The notes under the pieces were generated by a model that saw nothing but the letters and a program-made list of their open reading frames with translations, was not told the DNA's origin and ran no database searches. From the NCBI GenBank assembly GCA_022567305.1, contig JADFHF010000018.1:1-64000 (forward strand): a stretch of DNA of 64,000 nucleotides. Direction: 5' to 3'. Both the position numbers and the translations under genes were made by a program. Source of the stretch: Bacteroidota bacterium. GTDB lineage: Bacteria; Bacteroidota; Rhodothermia; Rhodothermales; UBA10348. Positions 6,850-62,826 of this stretch are shown here, piece by piece. Numbering within the stretch: the first letter of the stretch is position 1; each line of letters starts with the position of its first letter.

Positions 6850-7188
6850 TCACGTCTTGTCAGACTCCTTTTCCCCAGCCTCGTTTTTTCCGCCTTCGTT
6901 TGACATTTTCCTGGACATACGAGCCACTTGCATAAAGAAGGCCACCATCCCTATGGCTGATCCAATTAGAATGAACCAGGGTGCCGTATCCAGCCATCGG
7001 TCGAGCAGATATCCGGCCAACACGTAAACAAGCATCGATCCAGCCAGCTGAATGCCGAATCCAAGAGAAGGAGACCATTGCGCGAGGTCCGATTGCCAGG
7101 ATCTCTTTGCCTTTGTGCTTCGATTTTCGTCAGTTGGCAATGGAGGGGGGCCGATTTGGTGCCGGTAGCTTCGAAGCGGATCCTTCAT
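6850..7188 (-). CDS. atpZ: AtpZ/AtpI-family protein
   Basis: 112 residues with a polar N-terminus and two membrane helices (about 43-61 and 68-88). The family word GYLLDRWLDTAPWFILIG joins the helices, as in AtpZ (F0F1-ATPase-associated, proposed to help Mg/Ca handling and F0 assembly). The chosen ATG overlaps the bactofilin coding end by 59 bases. The next in-frame ATG lies inside the first helix, so either this overlap is real or a non-ATG start inside the N-terminus is used. A gap of about 150 bases follows before the AtpI-like gene. Confidence 0.85.
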   Translation of the reverse strand: MKDPLRSYRHQIGPPPLPTDENRSTKAKRSWQSDLAQWSPSLGFGIQLAGSMLVYVLAGYLLDRWLDTAPWFILIGSAIGMVAFFMQVARMSRKMSNEGGKNEAGEKESDKT

Positions 7189-7558
7189 CGAGGGCCTGGG
7201 CGCGTGACTTGTCGAGTTTACCCATCTCGCATTTTCCTTCGAACACCGCGCCTTCTTCCATTATGAGTCGAGACGTGCTGATTGAGCCTTCAACGCGGGC
7301 CGTTGCCTTAAGCACGAGGCGTCCCTTAACGACAATCTCTCCACTTACTTTACCAGAAATATCAGCGTCATTCGCATGAATGTCGCCTTCCACGACTCCG
7401 TCTTGGGCGATGATGGCTTTGCCGTCCACATGAAGAGCGCCTTTGACCCGACCACTGACACGGATATCGTCCTTAGCCCGTAAGGTGCCTTCAACTTCAG
7501 TACCCTCTGCGATCATATTGATCTGAGCCGGATCTGCTGGCGAATTCTTAGTTATCAT
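7130..7558 (-). CDS. Bactofilin (polymer-forming cytoskeletal protein)
   Basis: 142 residues. The centre (about 15-115) is the DUF583 right-handed beta-helix, seen as short repeats of hydrophobic and glycine residues (VEGTLRAKDDIRVSGRVKG, then VEGDIHANDADISGKVSGEI). The tails are short and disordered. Bactofilins polymerise without nucleotide and position cell-wall enzymes. Bactofilin and M23 peptidase genes are often neighbours; here the M23 gene is 6.3 kb upstream on the same strand, separated by the element at 7607-13896. It heads the ATP synthase cluster and overlaps atpZ. Confidence 0.93.
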   Translation of the reverse strand: MITKNSPADPAQINMIAEGTEVEGTLRAKDDIRVSGRVKGALHVDGKAIIAQDGVVEGDIHANDADISGKVSGEIVVKGRLVLKATARVEGSISTSRLIMEEGAVFEGKCEMGKLDKSRAQALDEGSASKLPAPNRPPSIAN

Positions 7559-7606
7559 AATACTCGACTGGTGCTCAACCGTTTAGACGTCCGGGGCTAA
7601 CTGATC

Positions 7607-7626
7607 ACATACCAATAACGTAATAA
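7607..7626. repeat. Left attachment repeat (copy of the M23 3' end)
   Basis: 20 bases, ACATACCAATAACRTAATAA, matching 13877-13896 at 19 of 20 positions. Read on the minus strand this copy encodes Y-Y-V-I-G-M and then TGA, the same six residues that end the M23 protein at the other copy, where the stop is TAA. The one mismatch falls in a tyrosine third position (TAC/TAT). The TGA would lie 46 bases upstream of the bactofilin start, a natural operon distance. This is therefore probably the original M23 gene end and the chromosomal half of an attachment site. Confidence 0.8.
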
Positions 7627-7745
7627 ATGAGATACTAACAGGAACAGTTGTGAATAGTCGAGAATTCGCTTGTAATAGCAGTATTTTTAGTATTCCCTTC
7701 TATTCTCGTCAATTCCAAGCTAAACACGTCAACCCGGAAGTCAAC

Positions 7746-8561
7746 ATGGCAAGAGTCAGTTTCTCTCTATGGAAAGGTAAGGTCTATCCGGTAATTCGCC
7801 ACAAAAGGCAGCGCAGCACTAAAGGTCTGCCAATAGAGCTGAAAAAAAGACTGGAATGAGAAAAAAGGGGTGGTTCGAAAGAGCCACCGCAGCCATGTGA
7901 AAATCAATGCGAAGATACAGGAGATCCGTGAGGCTGCCGAGGACGCCCTGTACGCTTCCATTTCCCCGAGTGGCCTGGATCTAAAAAATGTACTGCATTC
8001 ATTAGAAAGCAAATATGGAATCCCTCGGAGCAGTATAGACTTCATTGCTTTCTGTGAGGGTGTTATAGCCACCTACAAGGCCGCAGGGAAGGCGGGGACA
8101 GCAAATGTGTACGGCGAGAGTCCTCCGAGCCTTTCTGAGGGAGACGGGGCAGTATGAGTGCCTTCCTTTCTCCCGCCTTTCTCCGGAGCTAATGAGGTTG
8201 CGTCTAATAATGAAGAAGACTGAGAACGAGAAGAGTATGATTCTGCCCAAGCAGGCAGTACAGATCCTTGAAAGGTATCCCTCTAAGGGCATCATCTTCC
8301 CGATGCTGAGAGCCGATAAGATAGGTACAGCTGCTAAGGAGCTCCAGGAGAGGCGCACAGCCACGAGGACGATGAATAAAATGTTAAAGAGTAATAGGAA
8401 GAGCATCGGGAGTAGAGACACCATTGACCACGTCTCTTACGCGGCATTCTTTCGCGGACCACGTTCGAAAGAAGGGTTGGGCGGTATATGATATATCAAA
8501 GGCATTGGGTCACTCCAAGGTGTCTATTACAGAAAACTACTTGGTCTCCTTTCGAAGATAA
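7746..8561 (+). pseudogene. Tyrosine recombinase (integrase), frameshifted and internally deleted
   Basis: Pieces of one integrase lie in successive frames. 7746 begins MARVSFSLWKGKVYPV, the usual N-terminus of Bacteroidota recombinases. After a run of seven A bases the frame shifts to WNEKKGVVRKSHRSH and NAKIQEIREAAEDAL, then IAFCEGVIATYKAAGKAGTA (SAM-like core-binding domain). A second shift near 8110 gives LPFSRLSPELM. About 130 residues of the catalytic domain are then missing before LPKQAVQILERYP and IIFPMLR. A last shift near 8440 gives RHSFADHVRKKG and LGHSKVSITENYL, which carries the box-II arginine, the conserved histidine and the tyrosine nucleophile. The reading ends at TAA 8559-8561. 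Confidence 0.85.
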
Positions 8562-8643
8562 ATGGGGGTGATTGAGGAGGCGGTTCCAAAAGGCAAGATG
8601 CGATTCATAGCAGAGAGAAGCCTCTCAATACTGACGGAAAAAA

Positions 8644-8973
8644 ATGTACAGTGACTGCGTAAGAATGGCTTCCAAGCCATTTTACCGGGTATCGAATCCT
8701 GATATTCGATGGGCAACAAATCGGGAACGGGACGCAAACAGGCCAAGGAGAAGACGACCTAGGCACATACGACACCTGCTGGACACGGATCGCTCGGTGC
8801 GCGATTTCTTCGAGTGCGAGACCGAGGTTATTCCGTCGTTTTACATCAATCGCATGAAACAAGATTGGGGAGAATTCCGGGCGTACTTACCCGAGGGAAC
8901 CATTCACGACGATCCCAATGCCTATCTCAAGAAAATAGAGCAACAAAATCTGAATGCGATCCCGCACGCCTAA
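8644..8973 (+). pseudogene. C-terminal fragment of an unidentified larger protein
   Basis: The open frame spans 109 codons, but only the last 67 or so (from RHIRHLLDTDRSV) look like real protein: an amphipathic stretch, then ETEVIPSFYINRMKQD, WGEFRAYLPEG and HDDPNAYLKKIE. The first 40 codons are arginine-rich and unconvincing. The reading resembles the tail of a long enzyme; C-termini of some B12-binding radical SAM proteins have a similar feel, but that is a weak impression. Lying between the dead integrase and the aldolase, it is best seen as a truncated remnant within the element. Confidence 0.4.
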
Positions 8974-9047
8974 CCAGCAACCGTGTTCGTCGTCCCCCGC
9001 TCTCGCGTTTGTCAATGAGAGCCGGATGGAGTCTGCCCAAAGCAATC

Positions 9048-9698
9048 TCAACTTGAAGCGATGTGAGGCCGTTCAATCTCCAGTTTTGAATCCCTGAATA
9101 TCCGATCGCAGCAGGTCAGCAAAACAGAGGCCGCGTGACCGAGACTGCTACCGTACGCCATCACCCCATCTTCGTGTCCGCCCATGATGACCAGCTGTTT
9201 CGTCGGCCGAGTGTTGTCTTTCAACAGTCGAAACACTTCGCGAGCCATTTCGGGGGTGCCGTAGGCCACATCGGGTCGAGTTGTCGGGAGCTTGTTGAAG
9301 TACTTGCGCCAGAGTTCTCTATGATGAATGTGGATGACGGCGTTGATGGATCTAGACGCTTCATAAAAAGAAGCATGCGTCAACGATTCTGATGAAGCCT
9401 TGATCGGACCCTTGCAGCGAACGCGATTTTCATCGAAGTCATAATCAAGAACACGCGTAAAGTGCTCAGGGCGAAGTTTTCGCAGATTCCCAGTCGCCGA
9501 ACCCGTGATGATGAATTCATGGGCCGGTGTATCCCTGATACTAATATTGCCGAATCCGATTCCGTCGCGATAGGCTCCGATGAGCCCTACGTCGTACATC
9601 AACTGTCGCCACTCATTGAGCGTTTGGATTTTGTGCCAGCCACGTGCCGGACTGTCTATCCATTCGCAGTGAAACTTGATATATCCTTCGTCTCGCAT
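9048..9698 (-). CDS. Class II aldolase/dehydratase-family protein, probably acting on 5-methylthioribulose 1-phosphate
   Basis: 216 residues. The class II aldolase fold is marked by GFGNISIRD (residues about 50-60), the phosphate-site region TGSATGNLRKLRP, the acidic catalytic position in SSESLTH, the zinc-ligand block AVIHIHH and a third histidine in GGHEDGVMAYG. It starts 20 bases after mtnA in the same direction, so the two form an operon. The family includes MtnB dehydratases and the Ald2-type aldolases that split methylthioribulose 1-phosphate into DHAP and an aldehyde. No other methionine-salvage gene is present, which favours the aldolase (DHAP shunt) reading, but substrate is not settled by sequence alone. 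Both genes are intact inside an otherwise decayed element. Confidence 0.7.
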   Translation of the reverse strand: MRDEGYIKFHCEWIDSPARGWHKIQTLNEWRQLMYDVGLIGAYRDGIGFGNISIRDTPAHEFIITGSATGNLRKLRPEHFTRVLDYDFDENRVRCKGPIKASSESLTHASFYEASRSINAVIHIHHRELWRKYFNKLPTTRPDVAYGTPEMAREVFRLLKDNTRPTKQLVIMGGHEDGVMAYGSSLGHAASVLLTCCDRIFRDSKLEIERPHIASS

Positions 9699-9718
9699 GT
9701 AACGTTCCGTCGCTCGAC

Positions 9719-10819
9719 TTAGCGTCGCTCCGGGTAGAGATCCAGGATGTCTGCCTCATTCGGAGGTACGACTCCGCGTTCTGTAATGAGCCCGGTGACC
9801 AATTGTGGTGGTGTGACGTCGAAGGCAATATTTACGGTCGGACTATCTTCCGGCGTCAGTAACACACTTCGGATTTCGCCTTCAATGAGGCCCTGCGCAA
9901 ACTTAACCTCATCCCCGTGCCTTTCTTCAATCGGCGTTTCGGCAAGTCCGTCTCGAATATTCCAATCGAAGGATGTGGACGGTAGCGCAACGTAAAACGG
10001 AACATCGTTGTCCTTTGCCGCGAGTGCTTTCAGATAGGTTCCGATCTTATTGGTTACGAACCCCGTGATAGAGGTTCGATCGCTTCCAACGATTACCAGG
10101 TCCACCATGCCATGCTGCATCAAGTGCCCACCCGTATTGTCGGCAATTACAGTGTACGGTACCCCATGCTGGCCCAGCTCCCAGGCCGTGAGTCTAGCGC
10201 CCTGATTTCTAGGGCGCGTCTCGTCTACCCATACGTGGACGTCGATGTCGGCATCGTGCGCTGCATAAATCGGAGCCGTTGCCGTTCCGAAGTCGACAAA
10301 TGCAAGCCAGCCCGCATTGCAGTGCGTGAGAATATTGACACGGCCTTCCTGTTTTGCCTTACTCACACTTCGAATTAATTCAAGTCCATGCTCACCGATT
10401 CGACGACAGGCTTCCACGTCTTGGTCGGCAATCTCCTGGGCTCCGCAAAGCGCTATTTCTTTCTTCTCACGGAGAGTGTCTCCCAGAGTAATCGCGCGGA
10501 ATTGTCGATCGACAGACCACTCAAGGTTTACGGCCGTCGGGCGTGAAGCCTTTAAGTCGGCAGCGGCTTGTTGAAGCCTGTTCTCGATGGACGACTCATC
10601 GGCTGTGACTACGGCTAGATACATCCCGAAGCCGGCGGCTGCACCGATCGCACCCGCACCTCGAATATGCATGTCGTGAATGGCCGTAGCCATCTCAACG
10701 TGAGTAGACAGACGTTCTGTCTCAAATCGATGAGGGAGCCAACGCTGATCAATGATTTCAACGGCTTCACCCTCCGAAGCGGCCCAGATCGTTCGATAGT
10801 GTTTATTATTGACCTTCAT
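9719..10819 (-). CDS. mtnA: S-methyl-5-thioribose-1-phosphate isomerase (MtnA family)
   Basis: 366 residues, the family's normal length. MtnA converts 5-methylthioribose 1-phosphate to the ribulose 1-phosphate isomer in methylthioadenosine salvage and belongs to the eIF2B-alpha-like isomerase fold. The N-terminal substrate region has MHIRGAGAIGAAAGFG. The catalytic cysteine lies in ILTHCNAGWLA and the catalytic aspartate in VIVGSDRT. The C-terminus has the usual block up to TPPQLVTGLITERGVV. Paired with the aldolase downstream. Related members can act on other aldose 1-phosphates. It is not disrupted, unlike most of the surrounding element. Confidence 0.88.
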   Translation of the reverse strand: MKVNNKHYRTIWAASEGEAVEIIDQRWLPHRFETERLSTHVEMATAIHDMHIRGAGAIGAAAGFGMYLAVVTADESSIENRLQQAAADLKASRPTAVNLEWSVDRQFRAITLGDTLREKKEIALCGAQEIADQDVEACRRIGEHGLELIRSVSKAKQEGRVNILTHCNAGWLAFVDFGTATAPIYAAHDADIDVHVWVDETRPRNQGARLTAWELGQHGVPYTVIADNTGGHLMQHGMVDLVIVGSDRTSITGFVTNKIGTYLKALAAKDNDVPFYVALPSTSFDWNIRDGLAETPIEERHGDEVKFAQGLIEGEIRSVLLTPEDSPTVNIAFDVTPPQLVTGLITERGVVPPNEADILDLYPERR

Positions 10820-11489
10820 CCAAGCTTCTACTCATCGGTGTATTCGGAGAAAACGCTCCGTTCGTCAACATTTTCAACTCCCAACACCCATCCGGAATTT
10901 CCTGACGCGCCGGTACCCACCGCTGGACGGGTTAGACAAATATGGATGTTTTTTGGAGGAGATTCAACGCTCGTCTCGACTATTCACAGTCAGAGCCGAA
11001 AAGTCCGTAGAACCCCCGTAAGATTATCGGCCTTGAAAGACACCATGTGGGTGTTTGGGCTTCTGCAAAGATTGTATTTCGATTACCCTAGACGCAGTGC
11101 CAGTCATGTGTTTACGTTGCTGCTTATTACACCCTCAAAGGGCCGTATGCCATTTCGACACCAGGCGCAATATGCGCTAATAGTAGGAGAGACAACGTTG
11201 AAATCGACGCGGCTTTAATGCTCATGGAATGTGAACCGATTGGCAAGAGACACAAACAATCGGAGTTTCTCCTCGTGCACTAGCCCTGTCGTTTGTTCGG
11301 CGTCGCTGGCGGCCTGCTGCTCTCAGCCCTGAATTGTTTTAGAATGGTGTTATCAAAAGTTGAGAGCAGTCTAGCGACCGAGCGAGTCACCGGCTGGACC
11401 AATATGCGCTTTTGCACTTCCGTCCTCCACCCCCTCAGATATCTTTCGCCATCACATAACTTAAAGGCAGATTCATTTCAGAAGGCGAG
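10820..11489. other. Intergenic stretch with no convincing gene
   Basis: About 670 bases upstream of mtnA. Open frames here extend antisense into mtnA or have no protein character. One 28-codon run (11197-11283, plus) reads like coding sequence but has no start context and may be another gene scrap. The mtnA promoter should lie at its left end. Confidence 0.5.
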
Positions 11490-11497
11490 TATCTTTG
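11490..11497 (+). promoter_or_regulatory. Candidate Bacteroidota -7 promoter box
   Basis: TATCTTTG fits the TAnnTTTG -7 consensus of Bacteroidota primary sigma promoters and lies 38 bases upstream of the SieB-like start. A clear TTTG -33 box is not seen at the expected distance, so support is partial. Confidence 0.3.
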
Positions 11498-11535
11498 GCT
11501 GAAAATACCCACTGCATTTATCGTAAAACAAGAGA

Positions 11536-11921
11536 ATGGATCTCTGGAAAATATTCGAGTGGATCAAACCGAAGCCCAGCACTTATTTGCGATTGTCTTG
11601 GCAAGCGGTCTGCTTCTCTTTCTTCCCGGTAGCTTGCTTGGCTACCTCGCACTAACTGGATTGCGCTACGATTACAGAGCGTGGATTGGAGGTGTTTTTC
11701 TTATTTCTATTGCAATATGGCTTGCTCAAGGTATCTCGGTAGTCGCGAACATGGGTGTTCACGAAGTTACTTCCCGTTGCAATATTCGGGCAGCGAAAAA
11801 ATCCCTCAAGGATCTGACCAAAGATGAAAAAGCAATTCTATGACAGTTCTTGGAGAACGAGTTTGTCCCCCAACATGTAAGTCTCGAAAGTGGTAGCGTA
11901 AACCGTTTGGTCTCTAAATAA
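11536..11921 (+). pseudogene. SieB-like superinfection-exclusion protein, broken by one frameshift and one in-frame TGA
   Basis: The ATG at 11536 gives MDLWKIFEWIKPKP, then a one-base shift near 11577 leads into the frame of QHLFAIVLASGLLLFLPG and YRAWIGGVFLISIAIW, two membrane helices. The same frame goes on to LKDLTKDEKAIL, meets TGA at 11841-11843, and continues as QFLENEFVPQHVS and SGSVNRLVSK to TAA at 11919-11921. Two helices followed by an LT-x-x-EK-x-IL/FI segment match the phage SieB family (PF14163) in order and spacing. The protein would act at the inner membrane to block superinfecting phage. The two lesions suggest decay, unless the smaller 11559-11843 product is made from an alternative GTG start. 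Confidence 0.65.
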
Positions 11922-12073
11922 ATGATATATCGAGCATCACAGTTTGCTAATTGATACCTAGGTGGTGATCTAACCTCTGACTACAATATTCAACCGTGGC
12001 TGCGAAATCATCTGAGGGACATTCTGGACTTTCTTGAATAAACGTGGAATGACTAGGAATTGCTGATTCCGTC

Positions 12074-12850
12074 ATGATGTGGCTCACCTCCATGGTTTCT
12101 CCATCTACTCCCATTTCGAACTGGCGCCTGGTGGTACTATTTACGTTTGTCCTGGGATCTCTCGTCTGGTTTTTTACCCTTTCACCTATTCCCCAGGATC
12201 TTGCACACCATTCGTTAGCCGATAGTCGTCGCGTGCTCGGCATTCCTAACACCATTGACGTCCTGTCCAATCTTCCCTTCCTGATCGTGGGAATTCTCGG
12301 TATTCGGATTGTAATGCAGCATTATCTAAAGCCACTGTCGTTAGGCTGGTTGGTTCTGTTTATTTGCGTATCGCTCGTCTCTGTCGGCTCTGCTTATTAC
12401 CACTGGGCTCCTGACAACGATTCGCTCGTGTGGGATCGATTACCTCTGACGGTCGGATTTATGGGCCTGTTTGTTTCCTTAGTTGGCGAATACTTTGATC
12501 CACGATTACCTAAAATGACGTTGATACCGGCGATTATGGTTGGCATCAGCTCGGTGATTTACTGGCGTCTAACAGATGATTTGAGATTCTACATCTGGGT
12601 CCAATACATGCCGATGGGCGTCATAGTTATTTCGGTGGCGCTCTTGAAGTCACGGTTTTCACACAGCTACTTATTGGCTGTAGCTTTGGGGTGGTATCTT
12701 TTAGGTAAGTTATTTGAAGCTAATGACGCGGCGGTATTTCGGTATTCTCAAGAAGTAGTGAGTGGCCACAGTATCAAGCATTTGCTCGCCGCGGCGGGCT
12801 GTTACACATTGGTTGTCTATTTCCGGAGGCGTCGTTTTCTCGAAAGATGA
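12074..12850 (+). CDS. Alkaline ceramidase/CREST-family membrane hydrolase
   Basis: 258 residues with about seven membrane helices. The hallmark motifs of the CREST superfamily (alkaline ceramidases, PAQR, Per1) are present: a serine-histidine block SAYYHWAPDNDSLVWDRLP around residue 115, with the conserved aspartate, and a late HSIKHLLAAAG helix near residue 235 with paired histidines for zinc. The substrate could be a ceramide-like lipid or another amide or ester lipid; Bacteroidota make sphingolipids, so this is reasonable but unproven. The start could also be the ATG three codons or seven codons further in. It is the second intact unit in the element. Confidence 0.75.
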   Translation: MMWLTSMVSPSTPISNWRLVVLFTFVLGSLVWFFTLSPIPQDLAHHSLADSRRVLGIPNTIDVLSNLPFLIVGILGIRIVMQHYLKPLSLGWLVLFICVSLVSVGSAYYHWAPDNDSLVWDRLPLTVGFMGLFVSLVGEYFDPRLPKMTLIPAIMVGISSVIYWRLTDDLRFYIWVQYMPMGVIVISVALLKSRFSHSYLLAVALGWYLLGKLFEANDAAVFRYSQEVVSGHSIKHLLAAAGCYTLVVYFRRRRFLER

Positions 12851-12969
12851 GGCGCATAAGAAGGAGCTGTACTCCATACATATCTGGTTCCTGACTACGC
12901 CTCCACCCCCCCTAATTGCACTTCCACCCTGAACCCCGTTTCTTCTAGGTTCACCTACTCAGAACCCTG

Positions 12970-13038
12970 ATGGACGGCGAGAACCTATCCCACCAAAAGA
13001 TCCTCGAAGAACTTGGCCGAGGACCTTTAACCGAATAG
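12970..13038 (+). pseudogene. Short scrap resembling the start of a serine/threonine protein kinase
   Basis: 22 codons reading MDGENLSHQKILEELGRG and then a stop. The words fit the N-terminus of PknB-type kinases up to the glycine-rich loop (Y-x-I-L-E-E-L-G-R-G-G-M-G). Nothing of the kinase follows. Such a short match could be chance. Confidence 0.3.
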
Positions 13039-13152
13039 GGCCGCCGTCAACATTTCATAGGCCGAGTTTTCACGACTTGAAGTGAATATTAGTAGACATG
13101 AGAACAACCCGCCACTACAACAGGCGTGACAGGGTTGGACGACGTAGGTCAG

Positions 13153-13606
13153 TCATGGCTGCGCCCTAACTTGTACGTCGATCACTCCCGGCTTGTCTTC
13201 TCCTGACGTTCCGTGTATTAGTGTGACTTCCATGACCGAGCATCTATGCCTGAACTCAAAGGCATTGACAAGTTCGAAGATTGATTGCCCCAGCTCTGGT
13301 AACTCGTCCCATAGGTCCTGTAGTATTAGATCAGTCTTTGTTATTTCTAGTATCGTGTACGGGTGAAACCCGTCTCAGCAACCAGTAATTTAGAGTTTGG
13401 GTTTTTTAGTCCCCCATCTAAAAGAAACCCTTACTTCGTCTTCCCAACAATTCGGTGTTGAACACGGAGCCGTGAATAATCTTGTCACGAGACGATTGAC
13501 TTTTCGTGCGTCAACTTCGACGACCAGAATAGGCGGCGACGATCTTCACGGTCACTACAGCATCCCTTCCTTGCTCCGGGCCCATCTGATAATAAATCCG
13601 TAGCAT
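13153..13606 (-). pseudogene. Frameshifted remnant of an unidentified protein of about 150 residues
   Basis: Three coding-like pieces follow each other on the minus strand in different frames: from ATG at 13606, MLRIYYQMGPEQGRDAVVTV and VKIVAAYSGR; then VEVDARKVNRLVTRLF and EDEVRVSFRWGTKKPKL; then HPYTILEITKTDLILQDLWD, FELVNAFEFRHRCSVMEVTL and DKPGVIDVQVRAQP, ending at TGA 13153-13155. The segments look like one beta-rich cytoplasmic protein broken by two frameshifts. No family is recognised. It lies immediately downstream of the second integrase remnant on the same strand. Confidence 0.45.
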
Positions 13607-13619
13607 CTTGAGCAGTCAA

Positions 13620-13772
13620 CTACGGATTCAACAAGCTATTCCCATATGCCGCCGAGACCCGATTACCCAGTGTACTTACATCTAAATCGCGCACATACGC
13701 ATCTGTCCTACTAGCGTCGGTGTGCCCAAGAGAGTTTGGCAGATCCCAAATTGAAAGACCACTGCCAGCGTT
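13620..13772 (-). pseudogene. C-terminal remnant of a second tyrosine recombinase
   Basis: 51 codons on the minus strand: NAGSGLSIWDLPNSLGHTDA then SRTDAYVRDLDVSTLGN to a TAG at 13620-13622. This is the final block of a tyrosine recombinase: the helix before the conserved LGH, then the tyrosine-bearing T-x-x-Y-V-R-D-L-D. Upstream sequence has lost the rest of the catalytic domain. It is a different family member from the 7746-8561 remnant and lies about 100 bases from the right attachment repeat. Confidence 0.7.
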
Positions 13773-13874
13773 ATTCTCTTCGTTCTCCTCTTCTCAGCAA
13801 AAAACGTCACCGATAGCGCATATCATAATTATTGAAATCAGTATAATTATTTGCGTTGCTTGATGTTACAGTCA

Positions 13875-14798
13875 TTACATACCAATAACATAATAATTCG
13901 GGTCCTGCGCCAGTCCGTTGTGCCACAGCTCAAAATGCAGATGTGGACCGGTCGTGATTTCGCCAGAATTCCCGCTTAATGCCACTGCTTCTCGATCCCG
14001 AACGCGATTTCCAAGGCGTTTCAACAGGCGACTGTTGTGTTTGTAGACGGAAACAAAGCCATCTGCATACTGGATCGCAATGATTTGGCCGCCATCGTGT
14101 GTCCAATCTGCCATAATCACATAGCCGTCTCCGATCGCGCGAACAACACTTCCCTCGTTAACGGCTACGTCGATTGCGTAGTGGCCTGTCCTCGCTTCAA
14201 ATCCTCTCGACACAATTCCGGATACCGGGGGAAGAACCGGAAATCGGAGTCCCGACAGATACCGGGCCTCAATAGAGGAAAGAGAAGCCGGAAGAGATAC
14301 CTCGCTTGAGAGCCGCGTCAGCGGCAATGCTGGTTGTTCATGATCCTCCCAATCGGCAGATATGGGATCAAAAGCGGGCTCAAGCCGATCGCCCTGAATC
14401 GAAAATACGGGCTGCGGACGCCTCGAAGGCCGTGTTGCCGTCGTATCGACGGTCCCCATCATCAAGTCTCGAAGCTGGTTGACGTATTCGGCTTGCATGA
14501 CAAGCGTGTCTTCCATTGCCCGAATCCGTAACTGATTAAGTCGAGCGTCGCTCCTCATCTGGATCGTTCCATAGCCCGGAAGAAATCCACGAACCGGCGT
14601 AAACAGAAGGAGACAAAGAATAATAATGGTTACGAAGAACACGCCCCCGACGAAAAAGCCTAAAATCTGACTGGGATTTATCGAATGCCTTCGTGGGGGA
14701 TCGAGACCCTCCTCGTCCATTACAATCACGGTAATTCGATTACCCAGGTTGTGAACGATCTCTGAAAAAAATGACCACATAGACTCTTTAATGCTCAA
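13875..14798 (-). CDS. M23 (LytM-type) peptidase, membrane-anchored
   Basis: 307 residues. A cytoplasmic N-terminus of about 45 residues, one membrane helix (about 47-70, LGFFVGGVFFVTIIILCLLLF), a linker with a short helical region, then the M23 domain from about residue 200. Zinc ligands appear as H and D in GHYAIDVAVNEGS and the last H in GPHLHFELWHNG. It cleaves peptidoglycan cross-links or regulates an amidase at the outer face of the inner membrane. Its partner is probably the bactofilin at 7130-7558, from which it has been separated by the element. Its last six codons are shared with the element's left end. Confidence 0.92.
   Translation of the reverse strand: MSIKESMWSFFSEIVHNLGNRITVIVMDEEGLDPPRRHSINPSQILGFFVGGVFFVTIIILCLLLFTPVRGFLPGYGTIQMRSDARLNQLRIRAMEDTLVMQAEYVNQLRDLMMGTVDTTATRPSRRPQPVFSIQGDRLEPAFDPISADWEDHEQPALPLTRLSSEVSLPASLSSIEARYLSGLRFPVLPPVSGIVSRGFEARTGHYAIDVAVNEGSVVRAIGDGYVIMADWTHDGGQIIAIQYADGFVSVYKHNSRLLKRLGNRVRDREAVALSGNSGEITTGPHLHFELWHNGLAQDPNYYVIGM
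13877..13896. repeat. Right attachment repeat, inside the M23 coding end
   Basis: Matches 7607-7626 at 19 of 20 positions. It covers the last codons of the M23 gene (Y-Y-V-I-G-M) and the final base of its TAA. An element that integrates here and carries the same 20 bases restores the protein's C-terminus, which explains why the gene is intact. Confidence 0.8.
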
Positions 14799-62340: not shown

Positions 62341-62826
62341 CTAATCGTCACTGTCTTCAAGCACCGTCATCCCTCCAATCCATGTCCACCTGCCGTCCAT
62401 TTTCTGCCAGATATTCAGCTGTTTACGAGATGTCGTCGTCAACTTGCCATCATTGTCTTGCTCTGTTGACGTTGCCCAAAAGTAAATCTGAGCTGTATTA
62501 TCAAAGATCGATACCGCCAGAGGAATGATCTCAAAGTAAACTTGCGAAGAACGGGACAAGAATGCCTCGACCCATCGGTCGCCATTATTTTCAAACCATC
62601 CCACAGTTGGTGCACCATTTGGTGTCCACCAATGGGTGGCTTCTGGATGCTCATTACAAACTCTGCGCATTTCGGCGGGACCCTCCGTATTCCAGGCCTC
62701 CTAGCATGCCTGATTGAGATCAATTATTTCCTGCTACTCTGCAGTCCAGTTTTGCGCTAGCAAACGGGTGGGTACTATCGTGGCCAGGACAAACAGAGGT
62801 AGTAAAAAGCGAATTCCCTTAACCAT
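62341..62826 (-). pseudogene. NTF2/SnoaL-like secreted protein interrupted by two in-frame TAG codons
   Basis: From ATG 62826 a signal peptide (KGIRFLLPLFVLATIVPTRL, LLAQNWTAE) meets TAG at 62734-62736. The same frame continues EIIDLNQAC, meets TAG at 62701-62703, then goes on EAWNTEGPAEMRRVCNEHPE, ATHWWTPNGAPTVGWFENNG, YFEIIPLAVSIFDNTAQIYF and WQKMDGRWTWIGGMTVLEDS to TAA at 62341. The 161-codon frame otherwise has no shift. The fold is the NTF2-like/DUF4440 group. The first TAG could be a former CAG (Gln) and the second a former CAG or TGG. As read it cannot make a full protein unless TAG is suppressed; the tail from 62670 could be a truncated product. Confidence 0.7.

What the first reader, a model, noticed from the sequence alone, without database searches (positions are those of the whole stretch)
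7607..13896. Element integrated into the 3' end of an M23 peptidase gene, with a coding attachment repeat
Seen directly: a 20-bp direct repeat (19/20) 6.27 kb apart; both copies encode Y-Y-V-I-G-M and a stop on the minus strand, the single internal mismatch is synonymous, and the stop differs (TGA left, TAA right). The left copy lies 46 bases before bactofilin. Two dead tyrosine recombinases lie just inside the two ends. Established: tyrosine recombinases often target conserved gene 3' ends and restore the reading frame, mostly in tRNA genes. Inference: M23, bactofilin and the atp genes were once contiguous, and an element split them while repairing the peptidase gene from its own copy. Use of a cell-wall peptidase gene end as the target appears little described.
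Basis: partly seen in the sequence, partly recalled or inferred. Interest (0 to 1): 0.75.

Follow-up and report, generated by a model that had tools for sequence, protein, structure and literature searches.

The report
Dead genomic island in M23 gene
A 6.3 kb mobile element, now dead, once inserted at the very end of a cell-wall enzyme gene, left that gene with a complete end, and so split a gene pair that stays together in nearly all related bacteria examined; the mechanism is of a known kind, but this target gene looks new.

Summary
Confirmed. A 23-bp direct repeat (21/23; core 19/20) flanks 7627-13873. The right copy is the 3' end of an M23 peptidase gene; the left, orphan copy (YYVIGM-stop) lies 46 bp before bactofilin, where the M23 end sits in relatives. 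The repeat has no third copy in the genome. M23 and bactofilin were both found in 107 of 114 genomes of the order; in 105 of the 106 others they are neighbours (matched parts 27-440 bp apart), so the insert is derived. The exception, G051, has them on different contigs, without a repeat at the gene ends. Just inside the left end a frameshifted, partly deleted tyrosine recombinase reads inward. The right-end recombinase is a weakly supported C-terminal fragment; a third remnant lies at 13092-13154. Cargo: open mtnA, aldolase and ceramidase-like genes, plus debris. Best reading: a decayed genomic island integrated by a tyrosine recombinase at a protein-gene 3' end that stayed complete. The kind is known (SGI1 at the trmE 3' end); the target was described by none of the papers my searches returned and seen in no second genome. 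In passing: this genome lists 40 places matching a recombinase-gene, many only its last ~90 bp, in same-orientation arrays.

The parts
13875..14798 (-). M23 peptidase gene, target of the insertion, intact
   Evidence: Pfam Peptidase_M23 2e-23; match in 41 of 41 genomes at E<=0.001 (paralogues included) and 108 of 114 at E<=1e-40
13874..13896 (.). right attachment repeat; last codons and TAA stop of the M23 gene
7604..7626 (.). left attachment repeat; orphan YYVIGM-TGA end
7130..7558 (-). bactofilin gene, neighbour of M23 in relatives
   Evidence: Pfam 1.6e-28; 109 of 114 genomes at E<=1e-20
7746..8558 (+). dead tyrosine recombinase, pieces in frames 0,1,2,0, reading inward
8562..8973 (+). debris of a gene that is a 548-aa frame in G005 (radical-SAM-like by eye only)
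9048..9698 (-). class II aldolase/adducin-family gene, open; MtnB-like only distantly
   Evidence: Pfam 6.2e-14; TIGR03328 29.5 bits, cut-off 137.05
9719..10819 (-). mtnA, methylthioribose-1-phosphate isomerase, open
   Evidence: TIGR00512 392.7 bits, cut-off 279; 10 of 41 genomes, own included
11559..11843 (+). SieB-family frame of 94 aa, matches only positions 2-86 of a 147-position profile
   Evidence: Pfam 7.4e-17
12074..12850 (+). ceramidase-family membrane protein gene, open
   Evidence: Pfam 2e-08, 34.4 bits, cut-off 32.5; 2 of 41 genomes, own included
12896..13022 (+). copy of a dispersed repeat, 26 further matches in the own genome
13092..13154 (+). decayed copy of the 3' end of a multi-copy tyrosine recombinase gene
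13623..13775 (-). probable C-terminal remnant of a second recombinase just inside the right end
   Evidence: profile E 0.0013; 9.1 bits against at most 8.1 in 500 shuffles; no Pfam or PHROGs hit

Best explanation
A genomic island entered the chromosome by site-specific recombination between its own attP and an attB formed by the last codons and stop of the M23 peptidase gene. The two matching sequences became the flanking repeats at 7604-7626 and 13874-13896. The M23 gene kept or regained a complete end, and the displaced gene end stayed in front of bactofilin. The recombinase was most likely of the family left as the pseudogene at 7746-8558, which reads inward from the left end. The recombinase genes seen in the island have decayed, so it is probably fixed, while mtnA, the aldolase and the ceramidase-like gene are still open. 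Shown: repeats, the contiguous arrangement in relatives, dead integrase, cargo. Inferred: the reaction itself, which enzyme did it, and which copy is native.
For: Unique repeat at exactly the gene end and exactly at the expected place before bactofilin. M23 and bactofilin adjacent in 105 of the 106 other genomes with both; stop-to-start gap -1 to 169 bp in 28 of 28 loci measured, 36-39 bp in L005-L007, against 46 bp here. Tyrosine recombinase pseudogene 120 bp inside the left repeat. Sporadic cargo: mtnA in 10 of 41 and the ceramidase-like gene in 2 of 41 genomes, own included. No terminal inverted repeats.
Against: Single case: no other genome, viral contig or integrase locus examined shows the same target. 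The acting integrase is dead, so nothing shows its specificity. The genus is represented by this genome alone, so the empty site is read from other genera. The inside looks like a mosaic with remnants of more than one recombinase. G051 shows that the pair can also be separated without a repeat at the gene ends.
Confidence: 0.85

Rival explanations
1. Composite scar: an att-flanked island did insert at the M23 end, but the left integrase belongs to a later or different insertion, and the acting enzyme is the right-hand remnant or is lost; the inside is an accretion of several elements.
For: Remnants of up to three recombinases in two orientations and debris of multi-copy repeats. The right remnant has no room for its N-terminal part before the repeat.
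Against: The left integrase starts 120 bp from the repeat and reads inward, the usual place (recalled). The right remnant is weakly supported.
Confidence: 0.25
2. A transposon made a long target-site duplication of about 20 bp at the M23 end.
For: It too would give direct repeats and a complete gene end.
Against: No terminal inverted repeats: 12 of the first 30 bases match. No transposase was seen among the insert frames given to Pfam. Duplications of this length are unusual (recalled).
Confidence: 0.04
3. Chance repeat or gene relocation: M23 and bactofilin were never neighbours here and the repeat is a coincidence.
For: G051 shows that the pair can be separated without a repeat at the gene ends.
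Against: 0 matches in 100 shuffles; adjacency in 105 of 106 other genomes with both genes; the orphan copy lies 46 bp before bactofilin.
Confidence: 0.01

Closest known systems
Salmonella genomic island 1 and variants at the 3' end of trmE (PMC8409611, start of abstract seen in the listing)
   Same: Island integrated at the 3' end of a conserved protein gene by a recombinase. That SGI1 has a short direct repeat covering the stop and leaves trmE whole is recalled.
   Different: Target is an M23 peptidase gene; this island is dead and about 6 kb. That SGI1 is far larger and IncA/C-mobilised is recalled except for the mobilisation, which the abstract states.
Islands and prophages in icd and fis (PMC10111431, passages)
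   Same: Tyrosine-integrase islands in conserved protein genes, mapped by comparison with uninterrupted genomes.
   Different: Other genes, other phylum, and elements that are still mobile in part.
Islands in protein genes in general (PMC12884075, passages)
   Same: States that 56.6% of islands of one database lie in tRNA or tmRNA genes or intergenic sequence, that many lie in protein genes, and that islands often reconstitute the gene.
   Different: The passages do not mention M23; the term M23 does not occur in that text.
M23 peptidase-bactofilin gene pair, lmdC-bacA (PMC10945521, passages)
   Same: Adjacent M23 and bactofilin genes, reported there from 226 species of many phyla.
   Different: Here the pair is parted by an island while both genes remain whole.

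Membership tests
Genomic island integrated by a tyrosine recombinase | Direct repeats (attL/attR) at both ends | tested here: met
   21/23 bp, two copies in the genome
Genomic island integrated by a tyrosine recombinase | Uninterrupted site in relatives | tested here: met
   105 of 106 other genomes with both genes, but none of the same genus is held
Genomic island integrated by a tyrosine recombinase | Integrase gene close to an end | tested here: met
   present as a pseudogene 120 bp inside the left repeat
Genomic island integrated by a tyrosine recombinase | Target gene left complete | tested here: met
   M23 frame open to a consensus-like end; expression not tested
Genomic island integrated by a tyrosine recombinase | Excision and transfer | not testable with these tools
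   the recombinases seen are dead
Prophage | Phage structural or replication genes | tested here: inconclusive
   Six insert proteins or fragments scanned against PHROGs; only the integrase scored below 1e-3. mtnA and the aldolase were not scanned there.
Integrative and conjugative element | Relaxase and type IV secretion genes | tested here: inconclusive
   No such Pfam family among the insert proteins and fragments scanned; no dedicated search
DDE transposon | Terminal inverted repeats inside the direct repeat | tested here: not met
   12 of 30 bases match
Integron cassette array (for the ~90-bp repeats noticed in passing) | Shared folded (attC) structure of the sites | tested here: not met
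   consensus energy -1.13 kcal/mol, 8 pairs, 2 with a compensatory change, 25 sequences

The most novel reading that the evidence does not exclude
This genome uses coding gene 3' ends as attachment sites as a habit. Besides the M23 end, the last ~90 bp of a tyrosine recombinase gene (ANHADMRTTRIYDKRDRVIRRTSVERIVY-stop) recurs at many places, often without the rest of the gene and in same-orientation arrays, as if that coding end were itself the att site of a cassette-like accretion system; the M23 island carries a dead copy of it (13092-13154).
Probability: 0.2. Interest if true: 0.75.

Novelty: new member of a known kind. Interest (0 to 1): 0.42.

Why it matters
It adds an M23 peptidase gene, in the middle of a conserved M23-bactofilin cell-shape pair, to the protein genes whose 3' ends serve as island attachment sites, with an order-wide comparison of the uninterrupted site. 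It shows that an island can part two functionally linked genes without breaking either, a natural case in which to ask whether their shared transcription matters. The side observation (a recombinase-gene 3' end scattered in oriented arrays) may be the more original lead.

Tried and rejected
Recurrence of the same att: the codon-degenerate pattern TAYTAYGTNATHGGNATGTRR gave 15 stretches in genome contigs and 11 in viral contigs. None of these 26 loci matched the M23 protein or the left integrase by tblastn at E<=0.01. The exact 19-mer gave 0 in viral contigs. So no second case.

G006 gave two M23 matches and G031 a short one at a contig start, which looked at first like duplicated gene ends. 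In G006 it is one open frame of 360 aa with extra sequence before the tail. In G031 the gene is cut by the contig start and bactofilin follows 285 bp on. G022 has M23 55 bp from a contig start and no bactofilin match at E<=1e-20. G051 has the two genes on different contigs; the stretch after M23 and the stretch before bactofilin share one 12-mer in the same orientation (L118:648, L119:6293), far from both gene ends, so I see no att pair there; what separates them is unexplained.

Integrase relatives: in 12 loci around such genes I looked for 14-mer seeds repeated from beside the integrase start. L106 (28/34) and L127 (19/25) gave hits, the other ten none; by their letters neither is the M23 end. 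Five loci were viewed with their neighbours, no M23 seen. tRNA scan: in the window one tRNA-Ser at 832-921, not at the insert.

attC-like folding of the 90-bp repeats: not supported. A Bacteroidota-type promoter pattern (recalled) gave one match in the window, at 62477, with 0.35 expected. Sigma-70-like sites 12 against 8.0 (sd 3.1) in shuffles, terminator-like 6 against 7.4: no use. Rfam: one match, below its gathering score. A viral-contig scan for the multi-copy recombinase: 5 stretches matched a pattern, none a relative. TIGR01694 in the own genome: two matches, 80.0 and 74.7 bits, below the 274.85 cut-off, so what feeds mtnA is open. PMC6764341 and PMC10936790 were opened for passages only and add nothing decisive; PMC6764341 puts a Bacteroidota-phylum (recalled) island in a tRNA-Arg gene.

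From the integrase profile I left out two of 21 frames (L057, L058). Searches list 40 scored of 59 and 52 candidates, so counts from them are lower bounds.
Full report
Observation. The repeat is real and at the stated place: 7607-7626 and 13877-13896 match at 19/20 and, extended, 7604-7626 and 13874-13896 at 21/23. With up to three mismatches the 20-mer occurs twice in the window and in none of 100 dinucleotide shuffles, and the 23-mer occurs twice in the own genome as held, 3.76 Mb in 115 contigs. On the minus strand both copies read YYVIGM and a stop; the inner mismatch is synonymous and the stops are TGA (left) and TAA (right). The right copy is the end of an intact M23 peptidase gene, 13875-14798 (Pfam 2e-23). 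The left copy has no gene and lies 46 bp before the start of bactofilin, 7130-7558 (Pfam 1.6e-28).

Is the insert derived? Yes, as far as other genera tell; no second genome of the genus is held. In the loci fetched for 29 relatives, M23 and bactofilin are followed by atpI and atpB where the stretch reaches that far and is matched. In 28 of the 28 loci that hold both genes (L010 lacks bactofilin) the M23 stop to bactofilin start gap, extrapolated from the alignments, is -1 to 169 bp, and 36-39 bp in L005, L006 and L007. I then took the 114 genomes held for the order. M23 was found in 108 of 114 at E<=1e-40 and bactofilin in 109 of 114 at E<=1e-20. Both were found in 107. In 106 of these they lie on one contig and strand: the own genome with 6320 bp between matched parts, the 105 others with 27-440 bp, median 114. 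The one left, G051, has them on different contigs. Its M23 downstream and bactofilin upstream stretches share a single 12-mer in the same orientation, far from both gene ends, so I see no att pair there.

What lies inside. Starting 120 bp inside the left repeat and reading inward is a broken tyrosine recombinase, 7746-8558 on the + strand, in frames 0, 1, 2, 0 and, by eye, with its middle deleted. The joined letters hit Phage_integrase at 4.8e-11 and a PHROGs integrase family at 5.4e-11; a profile of 19 recombinase frames from relatives and the own genome finds three separate frames at 6.2e-20, 7.2e-14 and 1e-11. At the right end, 13623-13775 on the - strand, is a fragment resembling the C-terminal box. 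It has no Pfam or PHROGs hit and a profile E-value of 0.0013; in its own kilobase it scores 9.1 bits, against at most 8.1 in 500 shuffles, 468 of which gave any hit. I rate it probable. There is no room before the repeat for its N-terminal part. Another remnant, 13092-13154 on the + strand, belongs to a recombinase family with many copies in this genome.

Cargo. Open frames are mtnA, 9719-10819 (TIGR00512, 392.7 bits, cut-off 279); a class II aldolase, 9048-9698 (Pfam 6.2e-14; only 29.5 bits to the MtnB model, cut-off 137.05); and a ceramidase-like membrane protein, 12074-12850 (34.4 bits, cut-off 32.5). A 94-aa SieB-family frame, 11559-11843, covers only the first part of its profile. At E<=1e-20 mtnA has one match in the own genome and was found in 10 of 41 genomes, own included; the ceramidase-like gene in 2 of 41, own included. 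Among five genomes searched, the aldolase has a 66% identical paralogue in the own genome, a 73% relative in G005 and a 40% one in G039; in the own genome and G005 it lies beside two other shared genes. After the integrase lies debris of a gene that is a 548-aa frame in G005.

Mechanism. The simplest account is site-specific recombination between an attP on an island and an attB made by the last codons of M23. It yields the two repeats, a complete M23 gene and an orphan gene end in front of bactofilin. Shown: the repeats, the contiguous arrangement in relatives, the dead integrase, the intact target. Inferred: that the left integrase family did it, and the direction of exchange; the codons do not tell which copy is native. 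A transposon with a long target duplication is disfavoured, as there are no terminal inverted repeats (12 of 30 bases). An assembly error is unlikely, as the copies share only 13 exact bases in a row (inference). The separation of M23 from bactofilin would end any read-through between them; that effect was not tested.

Recurrence. I looked for other elements at the same gene end and found none. A codon-degenerate pattern gave 15 genome and 11 viral stretches, none matching M23 or the integrase; the exact 19-mer gave none in viral contigs. Matches to the integrase at E<=1e-5 occur in 15 of 41 genomes, own included; in the 30 loci held for them, about 1.5 kb to each side, M23 has no match at E<=0.01. 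The target therefore rests on a single case.

Comparison with what is known. Islands at protein-gene 3' ends are established: SGI1 variants at the 3' end of trmE (PMC8409611, start of abstract in the listing), prophages in icd and islands in fis (PMC10111431, passages), and the general statement that 56.6% of islands of one database lie in tRNA or tmRNA genes or intergenic sequence while many lie in protein genes, and that islands often reconstitute them (PMC12884075, passages). Two searches aimed at an M23 or peptidase-gene site returned one paper each, whose passages do not describe one. M23 and bactofilin genes are known as a conserved adjacent pair with a role in cell shape, reported from 226 species (PMC10945521, passages). 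So the kind is known and the target is new as far as these searches go.

In passing. The second is the end of a tyrosine recombinase gene whose full copy on C80 (424 aa) hits Phage_integrase at 7.3e-18. A search with that gene lists 40 places (40 scored of 52 candidates), from near full length on C96 to copies of only the last ~90 bp. In the window and 24 own-genome stretches, 36 copies were found; the 17 neighbouring pairs within 7 kb are all in the same orientation, counted by eye. One pair on C56 differs in orientation but is 17 kb apart. Between copies lie one to several unrelated genes. No copy was found in 115 other loci (687 kb, fetched for other reasons), and no relative of the recombinase in viral contigs. 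The copies share no convincing fold, so attC-like folding is not supported; an att site inside the recombinase-gene end, with accretion, is one possible reading.

Verdict. A confirmed, well-founded, decayed genomic island with an unusual target; new member of a known kind; moderate interest.

Noticed in passing
window 13092-13154 (+); own-genome contigs C15, C31, C64, C67, C107, C57, C59, C56, C4, C40, C80, C96 (L199-L212, L124): The last ~90 bp of a tyrosine recombinase gene recurs at many places (40 listed, capped; 36 in the stretches fetched), often without the rest of the gene; 17 of 17 neighbouring pairs within 7 kb share orientation, with one to several unrelated genes between. Looks like an accretion or cassette-like array; no shared fold.
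   Followed up: partly
window 12896-13022 (+): Dispersed repeat with 26 further matches in the own genome, mostly 73-82% identical (capped list). By eye it reads as a leader and the first codons of a Ser/Thr-kinase-like gene (MDGENLSHQKILEELGRG); not tested.
   Followed up: no
L118 (G051:C32) and L119 (G051:C124): In G051 M23 and bactofilin lie on different contigs, with an AAA_14/DUF4143 gene and a UvrD_C/zinc-ribbon fragment before bactofilin and no repeat at the gene ends: a second, unexplained separation of the pair.
   Followed up: partly
L136:3139-5886 (G000:C36) and L135:2940-5870 (G005:C20): Paralogue or relative of the cargo aldolase sits beside two other shared genes (Tm-1-like and TIM-barrel-like by eye), a possible sugar-acid or carbon-use cluster from which the cargo aldolase may derive.
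   Followed up: no
L006 (G006:C68): The M23 gene of G006 is one open frame of 360 aa with extra sequence before its last 42 codons, so its tail matches separately.
   Followed up: no
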